A stretch of DNA of 53,148 nt from Clostridiales bacterium (lineage in GTDB: Bacteria > Bacillota > Clostridia > Christensenellales > Borkfalkiaceae), in the NCBI GenBank assembly GCA_015069505.1, contig SVIL01000002.1, positions 1 to 53,148 on the forward strand, written 5' to 3'. Shown here one piece after another: positions 11,114 through 18,958 of the stretch (its first letter is position 1; every line of letters begins with the position of its first letter). The notes below the pieces were generated by a model. That model searched no databases. It had not been told where the DNA came from and saw only the letters and a program-made list of their open reading frames with translations. The position numbers were made by a program, and so were the translations under genes.

Positions 11114-11446
11114 TTAATTTTTAGATTTTTCAATCCCAACAACACTTTCAACGGGCATAGAAAACGCTATGCCTTGCCCCTCGGTATTAAGCCCGCCCGA
11201 CTTATATATTGCGTGAAGTACGGCGTCTTTGATATCCTTTTTCACAAGTATCATAAGCACTTCTTTTTCAGGATGAACGTTTATATGGAAAAACTTTTCC
11301 GACTCAGGGTTAGCCGTGCCGTGTGCCTTAAAAACCGTTCCGCCCTTAGCACCGACCTCTTTTGCCGCATCCATAACCGTTTCGGCAAAACCTTCGTTTA
11401 TTATGCAAAATATAAGTTCAAACTGCAATTCATTATTTTCCGTCAT
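11114..11446 (-). CDS. P-II family nitrogen-regulator-like protein
   Basis: 110 aa; ELIFCIINEGFAETVMDAAKEVGAKGGTVFKAHGT...GIAFSMPVESVVGI ferredoxin-like P-II pattern. Confidence 0.75.
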   Translation of the reverse strand: MTENNELQFELIFCIINEGFAETVMDAAKEVGAKGGTVFKAHGTANPESEKFFHINVHPEKEVLMILVKKDIKDAVLHAIYKSGGLNTEGQGIAFSMPVESVVGIEKSKN

Positions 11447-11447
11447 A

Positions 11448-11861
11448 TCAATTCTCCTTTACCGTAAGCCTATTGTCGCTTAAAAACCCATACGCCAAAA
11501 CCCCGATTATACTCGATAGCGGCAAGGTATAAGCAATTCCCTTTCCGTTTTTAACCGTTCTAAACTTTTCCTCTAACACCGAACAAACTTCTGCAGCCAT
11601 ATCCTCTCTAATCGTGCTGAATATCACCGCCTTTTGAGAGCCTGCAAGCCCGAGCAATGAAAGCATCTCTGCATTAGCCGTCCCCTTTGCGGGAACGATG
11701 GTTTGCATATTAACCCCGTAGCCTTGAATCAAGTCAGCGTAATATTCCGCCTTGTTCCTATTCACAACGGTAACTAACAACTTCAACTTTTTAACGCCGT
11801 CAGTCGTGGGTTTTTGCTTTTTTAAGTTTTTTGGTTTTTCAACCTTTTTTCTATTCTCCAT
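11448..11861 (-). CDS. P-II-like protein with Lys-rich N-terminal extension
   Basis: KLLVTVVNRNKAEYYADLIQGYGVNMQTIVPAKGTANAE...GKGIAYTLPLSSIIGV. Start at 11861 (MENRKK) avoids overlap with the upstream CDS. Confidence 0.65.
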   Translation of the reverse strand: MENRKKVEKPKNLKKQKPTTDGVKKLKLLVTVVNRNKAEYYADLIQGYGVNMQTIVPAKGTANAEMLSLLGLAGSQKAVIFSTIREDMAAEVCSVLEEKFRTVKNGKGIAYTLPLSSIIGVLAYGFLSDNRLTVKEN

Positions 11862-11871
11862 ACTTCTCACC

Positions 11872-13398
11872 CTAACTAAAATCAATTATCTGCTCGTCGT
11901 CATCGGTTATTATCCGCTTCATAACGGCACGCTCTTTCATTTTAGCCTTGATAATTGCCCTAAACCCTAAACTTTGTATAGTTATAAGCGGGGTCATCGC
12001 TACCATCGCCACCACGCCAAACGCAAGACTTAAAACTTGTGACTCACCGCAAAGCGACATGCAAGCACCTATTACTAACGGCAGTATAAAACTCGACGTC
12101 AACGGCCCCGATGCAACGCCACCCGAGTCAAACGCTATCGCCGTGTAAATCTTAGGCACGAAAAACGATAACCCCAAAGACAATAGGTAGCCTGGCACTA
12201 TATAGTATAAAATCGAAAACCCAAATATCATCCTAATTATCGAAAGACCTATGGAAATTCCCACGCCGATAGACAGTGCAATCAACATCGCTTTTTTAGA
12301 TACCGAACCGCCCGTTACCCTTTCAACTTGTTTAGTAAGCACGTGTACCGCGGGTTCGGCAAGCACCACGACGCAACCTATCAAAACACCGAACACCACT
12401 AAAAGCACGGGGCTTTCTTTGGCGAGTGCCGTGCCAAGTTTATTGCCTATCGGCATAAACCCAACGTTTACGGCAAGTAGGAATATAACTAACCCAAAAT
12501 AGGTACAAATTATCCCGATTGTCATTTGTTTTAATTTCTTTTTAGGAAGTTTTAGCACGAATATTTGCAAAATGATAAAGAACAGTACTATCAACGCAAG
12601 CGAGATAAAGACTTCGCCAAAAACGCTTAGTACGGTTTTGGGAAGGTTTTCCCCGATAGCGGTGGATATAGAATAGTCAGGCGTGTTATACGACGGCGTG
12701 CCGTTAGAGAACAACGCCAAAAACACCACCGCAATTATAGGTCCTATTGAACAGAGAGCAACAAGCCCAAAACTGTTTTCGTTAGAGTTTTTGCCCCCGA
12801 CTACCCCTGCAATACCCACGCCGAGAGCCATTATAAACGGCACGGTTATGGGGCCCGTGGTAACCCCGCCCGAATCAAACGCAAGGGGTAAAAAGGCTTC
12901 TTTGCCGTTCTCAAAAAGAATTGCACACGTTGAGAATAAGGCTAAGTAAAAGAACAAAAGCAGCATAGAAAGGCTTTTATGAAAGACGATTTTTAGCACC
13001 GCCACGAGTAGCAGTACCCCCACGCCTACGCCTATGACGGCAGTAAGCACCGTTCCGTCGATAACCCCCGCCACTTGTGAGGCAAGAACGGTTAAGTCGG
13101 GCTCTGCAACGGTTATTAAAACGCCCATAATAAAGCATATGGAGAGCAGTACGGATACCTTTTTAGTCCTCGTTAAACCCGACCCGACTTGTTCGCCCAT
13201 CGGGGTCATTGAAAGTTCGGCACCAAGGTTAAAAAGTGCAATGCCCACCACAAGCATTAAAACGCAAACACCAAAAACCAACGTCTCGGTCAGCGTTACG
13301 TCAACCAAAGGCGTCAATGACAAAATAAATACTATTACCCCAACTGGCAGCACTGAAAACAATGCCTCTTTGAGTTTTGAAAGTAGTATATAGCCCAT
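11872..13398 (-). CDS. DUF1538 domain membrane protein (duplicated halves)
   Basis: 508 aa; LFNLGAELSMTPMGEQVGS, FDSGGVTTGPITVPFIMALGVG and FDSGGVASGPLTSSFILPLVIG repeats characteristic of DUF1538. Confidence 0.85.
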   Translation of the reverse strand: MGYILLSKLKEALFSVLPVGVIVFILSLTPLVDVTLTETLVFGVCVLMLVVGIALFNLGAELSMTPMGEQVGSGLTRTKKVSVLLSICFIMGVLITVAEPDLTVLASQVAGVIDGTVLTAVIGVGVGVLLLVAVLKIVFHKSLSMLLLFFYLALFSTCAILFENGKEAFLPLAFDSGGVTTGPITVPFIMALGVGIAGVVGGKNSNENSFGLVALCSIGPIIAVVFLALFSNGTPSYNTPDYSISTAIGENLPKTVLSVFGEVFISLALIVLFFIILQIFVLKLPKKKLKQMTIGIICTYFGLVIFLLAVNVGFMPIGNKLGTALAKESPVLLVVFGVLIGCVVVLAEPAVHVLTKQVERVTGGSVSKKAMLIALSIGVGISIGLSIIRMIFGFSILYYIVPGYLLSLGLSFFVPKIYTAIAFDSGGVASGPLTSSFILPLVIGACMSLCGESQVLSLAFGVVAMVAMTPLITIQSLGFRAIIKAKMKERAVMKRIITDDDEQIIDFS

Positions 13399-14238: not shown

Positions 14239-15015
14239 TTACGCCCTAATAAGGTCTTTAATTTCTTTTAACGCAGTTTTTTCTAAACGAGAAACTTGTG
14301 CTTGCGATATGCCAACCATATCGGATATTTCCGTCTGCGTTTTGCCCTCGTAATACCTAAGTTTGATAATCTTTTGCTCACGCTCGTTAAGTTTTGAAAG
14401 TGCGGTATTAAGTGCCACCCTTTCCGTCCAAGATTCGTCCGTGTTCTTTTCGTCGCCAAGCTGGTCAAGAAGCAAAAGTTCATCCCCCGACTTATTATAC
14501 ACAGGCTCGTAGATAGAAACGGTATCGGATATAGCGTCAAGTGCGTACACCACTTCGGAAAGTTTAACCTTCATTTCCTCGGCTATTCTTTCGATAGTCG
14601 CTTCTTTGTCCTGCTTTTCAAGTTCGCTCCTGGTCTTTAACGCTAGGTACGCCGTGTCCCGAATACTTCTTGCAATCCTAAGCGAATTCTCAGCCGAACG
14701 CAGGTGTTTTTTTATCTCACCTACTATTAAAGGCACTGCGTACGTTGAAAATTTAACCTCGTAACTTAAGTCAAAATTCTCCATCGCCTTGATTAAACCT
14801 ATGCACCCCGATTGAAACACGTCGTCAAAGTTAGTGCGTTTTGCCCAAAACCGTTTAATCACCGACAAAACCAGTCGCATATTCGCCACCACGAATTCCT
14901 CTCTCGCACGCTCGTCCCCCTCTTTAATACGCCTTAAAAGGCTTAAAGACGCTTCTTCTGTAATCCTTGGAAGACTGCTTGTGTCAATCCCGCAAATAAC
15001 TACTTTACTGCTCAT
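14239..15015 (-). CDS. sigG: RNA polymerase sporulation sigma factor SigG
   Basis: 258 aa; VVICGIDTSSLP...NMRLVLSVIKRF...FDLSYEVKFSTYAVPLIVGEIKKHLR...GISQAQVSRLEKTALKEI closely follows B. subtilis SigG. Confidence 0.93.
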   Translation of the reverse strand: MSSKVVICGIDTSSLPRITEEASLSLLRRIKEGDERAREEFVVANMRLVLSVIKRFWAKRTNFDDVFQSGCIGLIKAMENFDLSYEVKFSTYAVPLIVGEIKKHLRSAENSLRIARSIRDTAYLALKTRSELEKQDKEATIERIAEEMKVKLSEVVYALDAISDTVSIYEPVYNKSGDELLLLDQLGDEKNTDESWTERVALNTALSKLNEREQKIIKLRYYEGKTQTEISDMVGISQAQVSRLEKTALKEIKDLIRA

Positions 15016-15078
15016 ATTCCCCCCTTATTATGTACGGTAGGTGAATAAAGTATCGGCAATTAAAAAATTTTTATACAA

Positions 15079-15111
15079 AAAAATCCCCCAACGAAAAAGT
15101 GGGGGATAAAT
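15079..15111 (-). terminator. Intrinsic terminator at end of the SipW-type cassette
   Basis: Minus-strand TATCCCCCACTTTTTCGTTGGGGGATTTTTTT. Confidence 0.85.
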
Positions 15112-15123
15112 TTGATTTAGTTT

Positions 15124-16203
15124 TTATAGCCCTGCGATAATGTTATCAAGGGTATTATTTGTAGTTGAACGCCACGTATCGGTATCGAAAGACCCTGAAC
15201 CCATCCAACCGTCATATCTCTTAATAGTAGCCGTTCCAGCATACATATCGCCGAGTTGAACCCATATATCACCATCGTCGAAAGAGGTAAATACGGAAAC
15301 GTAAACCGGTGCTTTTGCCGTGCCGAACCAACTATTGTTTTCTAAGTCATCGGTCGTCATATAGATAGAGAGTTCATTACCCTCTGCGTCGCCCGTCGTC
15401 GTGTCGCCGTCGATGTTTTCGCGTTTAATAATAATTGTAACTTCCGTATCAACGCCGTCGATGTTAAGTAACAAGTTACCTTGGAACAAATCTTCAAGCA
15501 ATTCAATATCGTTTTCACTTGCACCGCCAACGTTTCCTATATAAGAATCGTCGTGACGGTCGTTGTTAGCATAGTCGTCCATTTGGTCTAACAAAATATC
15601 CAAAGTACCCTCTTGCGATATTTCATTGATAATATCGTTGAACTGACCTAACGCACCGCTTACCGCAACTTCTTCTAATTCAGGAAGTTCGTCTAACGGG
15701 GTAAACTCAAAAGTGACAATGGAATCCAAAACCTTATTCGACGAAACGTTCTTTTTATATCCGTAAGTCGCCTCAAATTCCAAATAACCATTAGGTTGGA
15801 TTTCATCCCCGTGCCTAAGGTCTGGCAAAGCGACGATTATATCTTGATTGCTATAATTTTCTGTAAAATATTTTACTGCGTTGAACGCATATATCTCTGA
15901 GGTTTTATTGTAAACAGTCAAATTAACCTTAGCATACGATTGAATATTGTTAGCAAGGGTTACTTTGGTATTAAAGTTTGTCTTTTGATACCCGTTAATA
16001 ACCATTACGCCACTGCTCTCGTTTAGAACGACAGCATCCGTTATATACACCCCGTCGGCAAGCGTCATTTCAACGCCAAAAGACTTGGTTATGTTTTCGG
16101 GCGGCAAGGCGTATTGCCACGTAGCGTAAACCCCGCCAACGGATAGCATGCATACGGAAATAATAAAAACAGAGAGTATGCGAAAAATCTTTTTACTTAT
16201 CAT
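15124..16203 (-). CDS. Secreted protein with SipW-dependent-type signal peptide (TasA/camelysin-like substrate candidate)
   Basis: MISKKIFRILSVFIISVCMLSVGGVYATWQYALP signal region; beta-rich Asp-rich exported domain. Start at 16203 preferred over 16239 (AGAGGTG RBS). Confidence 0.7.
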   Translation of the reverse strand: MISKKIFRILSVFIISVCMLSVGGVYATWQYALPPENITKSFGVEMTLADGVYITDAVVLNESSGVMVINGYQKTNFNTKVTLANNIQSYAKVNLTVYNKTSEIYAFNAVKYFTENYSNQDIIVALPDLRHGDEIQPNGYLEFEATYGYKKNVSSNKVLDSIVTFEFTPLDELPELEEVAVSGALGQFNDIINEISQEGTLDILLDQMDDYANNDRHDDSYIGNVGGASENDIELLEDLFQGNLLLNIDGVDTEVTIIIKRENIDGDTTTGDAEGNELSIYMTTDDLENNSWFGTAKAPVYVSVFTSFDDGDIWVQLGDMYAGTATIKRYDGWMGSGSFDTDTWRSTTNNTLDNIIAGL

Positions 16204-17416
16204 CTTGCACCTCTGATTTCGCCTCAGTAGGGTGTTCAAGTTGATAGAATTTTTGCTCTAAGACTTCAAGCACGCTTTGGGTATGCTTGTCCGAAATTAA
16301 CTTAAAACGCATAGGATAAAGTTTGTACCCTTTATGCCCTGACACGTCAAAGAACACGTATTTAGAGTACTTGTACTCAACGTGGTCGGTTGCGACGTAA
16401 ACCATAACCGTCTTACCCGTAATACGAATAATCGCCACGGGCTTGCCGTTTTGCTTGTACCTACGCTTTTCCATACTCTCTACGACTGCTACGCCGTCCT
16501 TAGACTTAATAAGCCCTTCGACAAGGTTAAACCTTGCAAACATCTCTTTAGAAAGCCCTTTGAGCCGCTGCTTAAAGTTAAGACGTAACTTTTTGCGTTT
16601 AATTTTAACGTCAACTTGGTCGTCAGCGACGGCAACCTGAAAACTTGGGCAAAGGATTAAAAATCTGTTATATCTTGCCTTAGAAATAGCGTTTTCAAGT
16701 AGTGGCGTGATAATCATTGCCGCTACGACAAGGATTATGCAAAGCCAACCTGCCGGGGATTGCATAAAAGTTATAAAACTACCTATCATAGGTATTCTTT
16801 GCCCGCGATAAATACCCTTTATTTGAGAATATCTAACGGGGAACCTATCCGGAGTTTCAACAGCGTCACCTTGGCAACGGAACCACCGCTCGTTTGGGTG
16901 GGCTTCGTTCGGCTCTTCAATCTGAACGATACGGTGAATAACGTGAACGCCGTCAACTTCATACACGACTATATCAAAAACTTTAAGATCAAACTCTGAC
17001 GGTGCTTGATATGTAAAAATCAAGTCGAAAGTTTGAATATGGTCGTTCAAATTATTTTCGACCAAATAGGTGTTCTTTTCGTGTTTTTTAGACATTGACG
17101 CACTGTTTACAACTTTTAGCGTTGGGACGCTTTCTGAAAAGATTTTGTCACGGAAACCTAAAGTTATAGAAAAAATGAAAACAACGCAAAGAATGCTACA
17201 CAAAAGTATGGACACTACAAAATCAATGCCCTTACATTTTTTAGCCTTTCCTTGTGTTGCTAAAAATTCTTCTTTAATTTTTTCGTCTTCCGTGCCTGAA
17301 TTAATCAGTTTAAAAGTCAATTTGACGATGCTTGTCAGCATAAACACTGACAAGCCCGTCAACATAATAAACACTATAAGGCACAGAATAAACGTATAAA
17401 CGTTATAACTGCTCAC
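16193..17416 (-). CDS. Signal peptidase I, SipW/ER-type (Ser/His), with C-terminal extension
   Basis: 407 aa; VVNSASMSKK (catalytic Ser), FDIVVYEVDGVHVIHRIVQIE (His in place of Lys), RCQGDAVETPDRFPVRYSQIKGIYRGQRIPMIG, C-terminal TM and ~150 aa cytosolic tail. Confidence 0.82.
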   Translation of the reverse strand: MSSYNVYTFILCLIVFIMLTGLSVFMLTSIVKLTFKLINSGTEDEKIKEEFLATQGKAKKCKGIDFVVSILLCSILCVVFIFSITLGFRDKIFSESVPTLKVVNSASMSKKHEKNTYLVENNLNDHIQTFDLIFTYQAPSEFDLKVFDIVVYEVDGVHVIHRIVQIEEPNEAHPNERWFRCQGDAVETPDRFPVRYSQIKGIYRGQRIPMIGSFITFMQSPAGWLCIILVVAAMIITPLLENAISKARYNRFLILCPSFQVAVADDQVDVKIKRKKLRLNFKQRLKGLSKEMFARFNLVEGLIKSKDGVAVVESMEKRRYKQNGKPVAIIRITGKTVMVYVATDHVEYKYSKYVFFDVSGHKGYKLYPMRFKLISDKHTQSVLEVLEQKFYQLEHPTEAKSEVQDDK

Positions 17417-17450
17417 GTCAATCCTAACCTAATCTAACAAGTAATCCCGA

Positions 17451-18104
17451 TTAAGCGTTTGGTTTGATGTTTGTAATCCTTAAACTGAAAGAAAGTGCTG
17501 CACCTTCGTGGGTTAAGCAACCCTTAAAATCATCAAAATCGTCATAAGTAGGAAGACTGAAAGTTCCAATCTTGATAGAGGTAAGCAAAAGTTGGGTTAT
17601 ATCGCAGGCGATCTTTTCATTTCCGCCGATAGTAATTTTTGAGAATACACCGTCACAAGTTTGGTCGGTAGAACCAATCTTACCGATTTTAAGTGCGTTT
17701 GCTGCACCGTTACCATCAACGTACTCGAAAATTTGAGTGTTGCCATACTTGTAGTTTGCAAGTGCGTCGCCGTCGGTAAAGTAGAAATAGGTATCAATAC
17801 CGTTTGCGTTGATGTCATCAGTAGAGTTTGCGTTTGGCGTAAATACCAAATAAATGTTGCCGTTAGCCCTTAAAACTGCGTCGTAATCGTTTTCTGCTTC
17901 TTGGTCAACCTTGAACGCTGTCAAAGTATCAGTCATTTCGATAGAGTATGAACCGACAGCACCAGAGAAGGTATAATCCATACCAACTGAAAGATTAACG
18001 TCGTGTTGGATTGCTGCGTCTATGTTACCATAAGACCAAGTTGCGTAAACACCGCCGATGGTTACGCAGAGTATCATTGCGATAAGTGCACTAAGTTTCT
18101 TCAT
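17451..18104 (-). CDS. Secreted protein with SipW-dependent-type signal peptide
   Basis: MKKLSALIAMILCVTIGGVYATWSYGNIDAAIQ; shares GGVYATW-Y with the 15124..16203 product; followed by beta-rich exported domain. Confidence 0.75.
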   Translation of the reverse strand: MKKLSALIAMILCVTIGGVYATWSYGNIDAAIQHDVNLSVGMDYTFSGAVGSYSIEMTDTLTAFKVDQEAENDYDAVLRANGNIYLVFTPNANSTDDINANGIDTYFYFTDGDALANYKYGNTQIFEYVDGNGAANALKIGKIGSTDQTCDGVFSKITIGGNEKIACDITQLLLTSIKIGTFSLPTYDDFDDFKGCLTHEGAALSFSLRITNIKPNA

Positions 18105-18146
18105 AATTTTTTCTCCTTCTAAAAAAGAATTTTTTAAGTGAGAAAA

Positions 18147-18175
18147 ATTATACCCCCCACCGCACTTTTTGTCAA
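18147..18175 (-). promoter_or_regulatory. Consensus sigma-A promoter of the SipW-type cassette
   Basis: Minus strand TTGACA (18175-18170), 17-bp spacer aaaagtgcggtgggggg, TATAAT (18152-18147); RBS AGAAGGAG upstream of ATG at 18104. Confidence 0.85.
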
Positions 18176-18250: not shown

Positions 18251-18958
18251 TTACACCATTTTTGAGAACTCTTTTTTAAGACGAGCGATAATCTTTTTTT
18301 CCAAACGAGATATATAACTTTGCGAAATCCCCATTTTATCCGCAACTTCCTTTTGCGTGAGTTCGTCTTTGCCGTAAAGCCCGTACCGCATAACCATAAT
18401 TTCACGCTCTCTGTCGTTCAGTTTTTTAAGGGCTTCTTTAAGCAAATCCATTTCCACGCCGTTCTCTATCTTTTTATACACCACGTCGTTATCCGTACCC
18501 ATAACGTCAGACAAAAGCAGTTCGTTGCCTTCCCAGTCGGTATTAAGCGGTTCGTCGAAAGAAACTTCGCTTTTAATCTTGACCGTACGCCTTAGGTGCA
18601 TTAAAATCTCGTTCTCAATACACCTTGAAGCGTACGTGGCAAGTTTTATATTCTTTTCAAGGTTATAAGACCCCACCGCCTTAATAAGCCCTATCGTGCC
18701 TACGGACACTAAGTCGTCAAGGTCCACCCCCGTATTCTCAAAACGGCGTGCGATGTACACCACAAGCCTAAGGTTGTGTTCTATAAGTTCGTCTTTAACC
18801 CCCGTCTCACCGCTACTAAGTCTTTCAAGCATTACCGATTCTTCTTCGGGGGTGTAAGGGCTTGGCAACGTTTCGCCACTGCCCATGTACCGAAGCATAT
18901 TCTCGGACAAAGAAAATTTGTTAAGAAACATTTTTATCGTCTCGGTTAAGTTTAGCAT
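18251..18958 (-). CDS. sigE: RNA polymerase sporulation sigma factor SigE (pro-sigma-E)
   Basis: [34 protein letters not shown]...[19 protein letters not shown]...[27 protein letters not shown]...[27 protein letters not shown]-terminal ~26-aa pro-region. Confidence 0.95.

What the first reader, a model, noticed from the sequence alone, without database searches (positions are those of the whole stretch)
15079..18175. SipW-type signal peptidase cassette with two 'GGVYATW' substrates inserted between sigE and sigG
Seen: three minus-strand ORFs (17451-18104, 16193-17416, 15124-16203) share one consensus promoter and end at a strong terminator. The middle ORF has an ER/SipW-type signal peptidase pattern (SASM Ser, VIHR His). 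Both flanking ORFs begin with near-identical signal peptide ends GGVYATW[SQ]Y, as expected for a dedicated peptidase and its substrates. Established: SipW processes TasA/TapA amyloid-fiber proteins in Bacillus, and sigE and sigG are usually adjacent. Inference: this is an uncharacterised fiber/matrix or spore-envelope system embedded in the forespore/mother-cell sigma locus. The two exported domains do not read as obvious TasA.
Basis: partly seen in the sequence, partly recalled or inferred. Interest (0 to 1): 0.75.

Follow-up and report, generated by a model that had tools for sequence, protein, structure and literature searches.

The report
SipW export cassette with two substrates
A three-gene unit, in which a special signal peptidase sits between two secreted proteins bearing the same rare signal, is found in over 80 mostly ruminant-gut Clostridia; it resembles the operon that builds Bacillus biofilm fibres but its proteins are unannotated, and its place among sporulation genes looks incidental.

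Summary
Three minus-strand ORFs (SubA 17451-18104, SipW-like 16193-17416, SubB 15124-16203) form one operon with a 12/12 sigma-A promoter and a terminator, between true sigE and sigG. The middle protein is SipW/ER-type: all 21 aligned members hit SipW models, and Ser107, His161 and Asp184/190 are invariant. SubA and SubB share only their first ~45 residues (hhalign 97%), including G-G-V-Y-A|x-W-x-Y; the encoding pattern GVYATW occurs twice in the genome, both times here. SubA-SipW-SubB recurs in most of 80 named Clostridia MAG loci, so the cassette is real. The sporulation inference fails: only 12 of 80 loci have sigE or sigG within 5 kb, several genus relatives have sigE-sigG without it, and its promoters are sigma-A-like. 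Neither exported protein matches a known family (TasA/camelysin, BsaA). I judge it a new variant of the tapA-sipW-tasA kind. SubA is probably the filament subunit and SubB, with an Ig-like domain, a TapA-like initiator; polymerisation is inferred, not shown. An unforeseen ~108-aa repeat domain, probably cytoplasmic and absent from Pfam and PDB, is fused 1-4 times to SipW here and is also fused or adjacent to SipW in camelysin operons of relatives.

The parts
18147..18175 (-). Operon promoter, TTGACA-17-TATAAT
   Evidence: 12/12 match; >=11/12 promoters lie upstream of SubA in 49% of 69 loci versus 13% of other ORFs and 0.8% of shuffles
18113..18120 (-). Ribosome-binding site AGAAGGAG of SubA
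   Evidence: read directly
17451..18104 (-). SubA, 217 aa; signal peptide 1-21 (GGVYA|TWSY); mature all-beta domain; candidate filament subunit
16193..17416 (-). SipW-like ER-type signal peptidase, 407 aa: N-terminal membrane segments, catalytic domain about 95-215, C-terminal membrane segment, then a predicted cytoplasmic tail
   Evidence: NF046067 E=6.5e-11 and TIGR02228 E=6.7e-10, both below curated cut-off; all 21 aligned sequences hit both; Ser107, His161, Asp184, Asp190 invariant; membrane segments read from the sequence by eye
16259..16579 (-). RGK repeat domain (about 108 aa) in the SipW tail, one copy here
   Evidence: profile hit 7.5e-40 (this sequence was in the seed alignment); 1-4 copies in other SipW proteins
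15124..16203 (-). SubB, 359 aa; signal peptide 1-27 (GGVYA|TWQY); Ig-like domain about 50-170 plus conserved C-terminal domain about 180-359; candidate initiator/anchor
15075..15107 (-). Intrinsic terminator of the operon
   Evidence: folding, z=-2.98
18251..18958 (-). sigE (flank, not part of the operon)
   Evidence: TIGR02835 above cut-off
14239..15015 (-). sigG (flank, not part of the operon)
   Evidence: best NCBIfam model PRK08215 SigG, E=1.8e-102, slightly below cut-off

Best explanation
It is a self-contained SipW-dependent export and assembly cassette, of the kind of Bacillus tapA-sipW-tasA, expressed from a strong vegetative promoter. Both SubA and SubB enter the Sec route with the signal G-G-V-Y-A|x-W-x-Y, which the cassette's own Ser/His(/Asp) peptidase cleaves after the Ala (the specificity is inferred from co-occurrence and the shared motif). 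Cleavage exposes near-identical mature N-termini (TWSY, TWQY), as in TasA (AFNDI) and TapA (AFHDI), which act there as donor strands. Most likely SubA is the polymerising subunit, and SubB, which has its own Ig-like domain, starts or anchors the fibre (inferred). The RGK domain behind the last membrane segment of SipW is an accessory cytoplasmic domain, regulatory or substrate-handling (inferred). The site between sigE and sigG is one landing or exchange site, not a regulatory link.
For: SipW identity. Three-gene unit: of 80 named loci 61 hold all three labelled genes, 70 hold SubA+SipW, and 70 hold SipW+SubB; contig ends explain some gaps. Shared N-terminal 50 columns of SubA and SubB, hhalign 97.4%, E=1.4e-11, nothing aligned beyond them; W at +2 in 97-98% and Y at +4 in 92-94% of 66 SubA and 51 SubB. 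Promoter enrichment. General Lys-type SPase I elsewhere. TasA donor strand uses F29 at mature +2, and TapA shares AFHDI/AFNDI with TasA (PMC9674648; PMC10151520). SubB Ig-like: FixG-like 2r39 prob 1.00, VAP-MSP 1z9l prob 0.99. Low-confidence mature N-terminus of SubA, residues 34-37 below 50. The clostridial sipW-bsaA operon makes filaments (PMC7395162).
Against: No sequence link of SubA or SubB to TasA/camelysin (PF12389) or BsaA (TIGR04090) beyond the signal region; SubA's model has no PDB match (best E=0.59) and only moderate confidence (pLDDT 75.6). No jelly-roll was recognised. The conservation of W and Y could serve peptidase recognition alone. Polymerisation, cleavage site and expression are untested.
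Confidence: 0.55

Rival explanations
1. Same dedicated peptidase, but SubA and SubB are independent secreted adhesins or surface antigens that never polymerise.
For: SubA mature part diverges fastest (24-41% identity when SigE is 74-79%), as for exposed antigens; SubB has at least two types; no fold match of SubA to fibre subunits.
Against: The shared mature N-terminal motif and the fixed gene order resemble TapA/TasA; sequence data alone do not separate this from the fibre model.
Confidence: 0.28
2. Spore-envelope system run by sigE/sigG.
For: Position between sigE and sigG in this genome and in 6 named loci with both genes nearby (L104, L105, L110, L114, L118, L158); B. [quoted passage not shown]
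Against: 12/12 sigma-A promoter with the same preference across loci; no sigma-E enrichment (0 of 69 near-perfect, 1% of other ORFs), sigma-G 6% versus 2%; 68 of 80 loci lie elsewhere; sigE-sigG adjacent without the cassette in L085, L087, L089, L091, L095, L098.
Confidence: 0.07
3. Merely a divergent tapA-sipW-tasA or sipW-bsaA operon, homologous throughout.
For: SipW homology and operon logic; one SubA member touches BsaA TIGR04090 at E=0.033.
Against: hhalign of SubA and SubB against relatives' camelysin proteins aligns only the signal (14 and 21 columns, prob 14% and 7%); same-genus genomes carry PF12389 proteins in separate operons.
Confidence: 0.07
4. A housekeeping signal peptidase that happens to lie between two secreted-protein genes.
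For: ER-type peptidases can be general (own knowledge).
Against: A Lys-type SPase I above cut-off is present; the trio recurs in dozens of different contexts; the GVYATW pattern is unique to the cassette.
Confidence: 0.03

Closest known systems
Bacillus subtilis tapA-sipW-tasA operon
   Same: SipW-type peptidase flanked by its two substrates, near-identical mature N-termini in the two substrates, aromatic residue at mature +2, one Ig-like partner.
   Different: SubA and SubB have no detectable sequence or fold match to TasA or TapA; motif is GGVYA-x-W-x-Y; SipW may carry RGK repeats; here the Ig-like partner comes last in the operon.
Clostridium perfringens sipW-bsaABCRSD (PMC7395162)
   Same: Clostridial SipW operon for secreted proteins; BsaA needs SipW and forms filaments.
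   Different: No two-component genes in the operon here; only one SubA member touches the BsaA family, at E=0.033.
Camelysin (PF12389) SipW operons in the same genus (L184-L191)
   Same: SipW plus substrates with a glycine-rich alternate signal; some have the same RGK domain fused to SipW or in a separate gene beside it.
   Different: Signal G-x-T-F-A-x-F-T-D instead of GGVYA-x-W-x-Y; substrate domains unrelated; separate loci.

Membership tests
SipW / ER-type signal peptidase | Homology to the SipW / TIGR02228 catalytic domain | tested here: met
   21 of 21 sequences hit NF046067 (best 7.7e-20) and TIGR02228 (best 9.5e-15); the window protein itself is below the curated cut-offs (42.1 vs 190; 39 vs 51.85 bits), so it is a member of the superfamily, not of the Bacillus equivalog
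SipW / ER-type signal peptidase | Ser and His catalytic residues, no Lys base | tested here: met
   S107, H161, R162, D184, D190 invariant in 21 sequences
SipW / ER-type signal peptidase | Cleaves its cognate substrates | not testable with these tools
   needs protein work
SipW-cognate signal peptide TIGR04088 | Match to the 34-position model | tested here: not met
   no match in the own genome at E<=10 while control genomes ring
TasA / camelysin (PF12389) | Match to the family profile | tested here: not met
   no match in 66 SubA or 51 SubB members, nor in the own genome
TasA / camelysin (PF12389) | Jelly-roll fold | tested here: inconclusive
   SubA model of moderate confidence without PDB match; SubB Ig-like, no camelysin among the best 50
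TasA / camelysin (PF12389) | Donor-strand fibre | not testable with these tools
   only the motif parallel is available
BsaA (TIGR04090) | Match to the family profile | tested here: not met
   one of 17 members at E=0.033; none at 0.01 in 66
sigE/sigG sporulation regulon | Sigma-E or sigma-G type promoter | tested here: not met
   against simple consensus strings recalled from general knowledge
sigE/sigG sporulation regulon | Conserved synteny with sigE/sigG | tested here: not met
   12 of 80 loci; the linked state changes at least 7 times on the SipW tree

The most novel reading that the evidence does not exclude
A further, unrecognised class of SipW-dependent extracellular fibre, widespread in ruminant-gut Clostridia, with subunits unrelated in sequence to TasA or BsaA, its own signal code (GGVYA|xWxY) running beside a camelysin/SipW pair of another code in the same cells, and a new cytoplasmic repeat domain that couples SipW to its cargo or to regulation; the cassette is swapped between conserved flanks such as sigE and sigG.
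Probability: 0.4. Interest if true: 0.68.

Novelty: new variant of a known kind. Interest (0 to 1): 0.52.

Why it matters
If true, it identifies a strongly expressed candidate surface or matrix fibre for uncultured gut Clostridia, and a case of two SipW/substrate pairs with different signal codes in one genome, which would make SipW specificity testable. The RGK domain, linked to SipW in two unrelated substrate systems, offers a handle on what the cytoplasmic part of SipW does.

Tried and rejected
Pfam, NCBIfam, PDB sequence and profile searches of SubA and SubB: no credible family. The weak SubA profile hit to the CFA/I subunit CfaE (E=0.013, 32 residues) was not relied on. Foldseek for SubA: nothing; SubB against the viral library: only weak partial beta-domain matches. 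Sigma-E/F/G promoter idea: no enrichment for sigma-E or sigma-F, at most a slight one for sigma-G. RGK as a SipW-only domain: rejected, it is common in the genus, so the SipW link is recurrent but not exclusive. RGK has no Pfam or PDB match. Literature searches found no account of this cassette, in an open-access library only.

Full report
OBSERVATION. The operon has a perfect sigma-A-type promoter (18175-18147), a good ribosome site for SubA, a 34-nt gap before SipW, an 11-nt overlap SipW/SubB and a terminator at about 15107-15075. Flanks are spoIIGA-sigE and sigG. The DNA pattern for GVYATW occurs twice in 1.33 Mb, both in the cassette, with no match for the reversed pattern. The genome is an 81%-complete assembly; the closest named loci are Clostridia MAGs, largely from ruminant guts.

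PEPTIDASE. NCBIfam gives SipW (NF046067) 6.5e-11 and TIGR02228 6.7e-10 for the window protein, below curated cut-offs, but all 21 aligned sequences hit both, and a profile touches human SEC11A/C weakly (0.018). Ser107, His161 and Asp184/Asp190 are invariant. The genome has its own Lys-type SPase I on another contig (MSGSSMSP...WLIKRVIAM), so general secretion does not need the SipW-like protein.

SUBSTRATES. In 66 SubA and 51 SubB sequences the positions around the expected cleavage site read G-G-V-Y-A|x-W-x-Y, with W at +2 in 97-98% and Y at +4 in 92-94%. Profile comparison of SubA with SubB aligns the first 50 columns (97.4%, E=1.4e-11) and nothing after. The mature parts differ: SubA is a fast-diverging all-beta domain (24-41% identity to the window's where SigE is 74-79%); SubB comes in at least two types with a partly shared C-terminal half. 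No Pfam or NCBIfam family fits. AlphaFold2: SubA pLDDT 75.6 with an ill-defined mature N-terminus, no PDB neighbour; SubB pLDDT 86.6, N-domain Ig-like (FixG-like 2r39, prob 1.00).

THE UNIT. A pattern scan of GTDB species genomes gave 106 relatives, 80 kept. Of these, 61 hold all three labelled genes, 70 SubA+SipW and 70 SipW+SubB; gaps are partly contig ends. The search was seeded from SipW alone, so the recurrence of SubA and SubB beside it is independent support.

SIG LOCUS. Twelve of 80 named loci have sigE and/or sigG within 5 kb. Of 44 genus genomes looked at (G000-G043), 17 including this one carry the cassette by my count, and 11 of those are linked to sigE or sigG. Other genus members have sigE directly followed by sigG without it (L085, L087, L089, L091, L095, L098). 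On a SipW tree the linked state needs 8 changes, at least 7 forced by well-supported branches, although it is more clustered than chance. I read this as repeated gain, loss or exchange at a favoured site; the tree cannot tell these apart. Promoters of at least 11/12 sigma-A match precede SubA in 49% of loci, against 13% for other ORFs and 0.8% of shuffles, and none precede SipW; sigma-E and sigma-F consensus matches are not enriched, sigma-G at most slightly (6% versus 2%). The consensus strings for E, F and G are my own knowledge.

MECHANISM. TasA fibres form by an N-terminal donor strand with F29, at mature position +2 (PMC9674648; mature start AFNDI). TapA, whose Ig fold is complete, starts them with a near-identical N-terminus, AFHDI versus AFNDI (PMC10151520). 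The cassette shows the same logic: TWSY and TWQY, one partner with an Ig-like domain, peptidase in between. Shown: shared motif, gene unit, SipW class. Inferred: cleavage specificity, fibre formation, roles of SubA and SubB.

RGK DOMAIN. A ~108-aa domain at SipW residues about 280-386 is repeated 1-4 times in 26 distinct SipW sequences held here and absent from the others. It has no Pfam or PDB match. Independently, loci fetched by PF12389 (camelysin) show it fused to SipW (L184, L190, L191) or in a membrane-anchored neighbour gene (L187, L189); L025 shows the latter too. It also occurs elsewhere in the genus, so it is a general domain repeatedly recruited to SipW. Its place after the last SipW membrane segment suggests the cytoplasm. 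[quoted passage not shown] not read) makes a regulatory role plausible.

VERDICT. A real, widespread and unannotated variant of the SipW-substrate operon; ordinary in principle, new in its substrates, signal code and SipW tail. A sporulation role is not supported.

Noticed in passing
L184 255-1439; L187 694-1437; L189 2207-2854; L190; L191; L025 2087-2875: The RGK domain is fused to SipW, or encoded by a membrane-anchored gene beside it, in separate camelysin-type operons of relatives.
   Followed up: partly
L002 1174-1926 (G000:C67): A stand-alone protein with membrane segment, acidic linker and RGK domain near groEL; similar-sized open frames with the domain occur in many genus genomes.
   Followed up: partly
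window 11114-13398 and L081 8050-10425: A DUF1538 (UmpA/B-like) gene followed by two small genes lies just beyond sigG here; its homologues lie directly beside the cassette in L081 of another genus.
   Followed up: no
sigE-sigG gap in L064, L084, L086, L102, L103: Other unrelated genes also sit directly downstream of sigE in relatives, as if this gap tolerates or attracts insertions.
   Followed up: no
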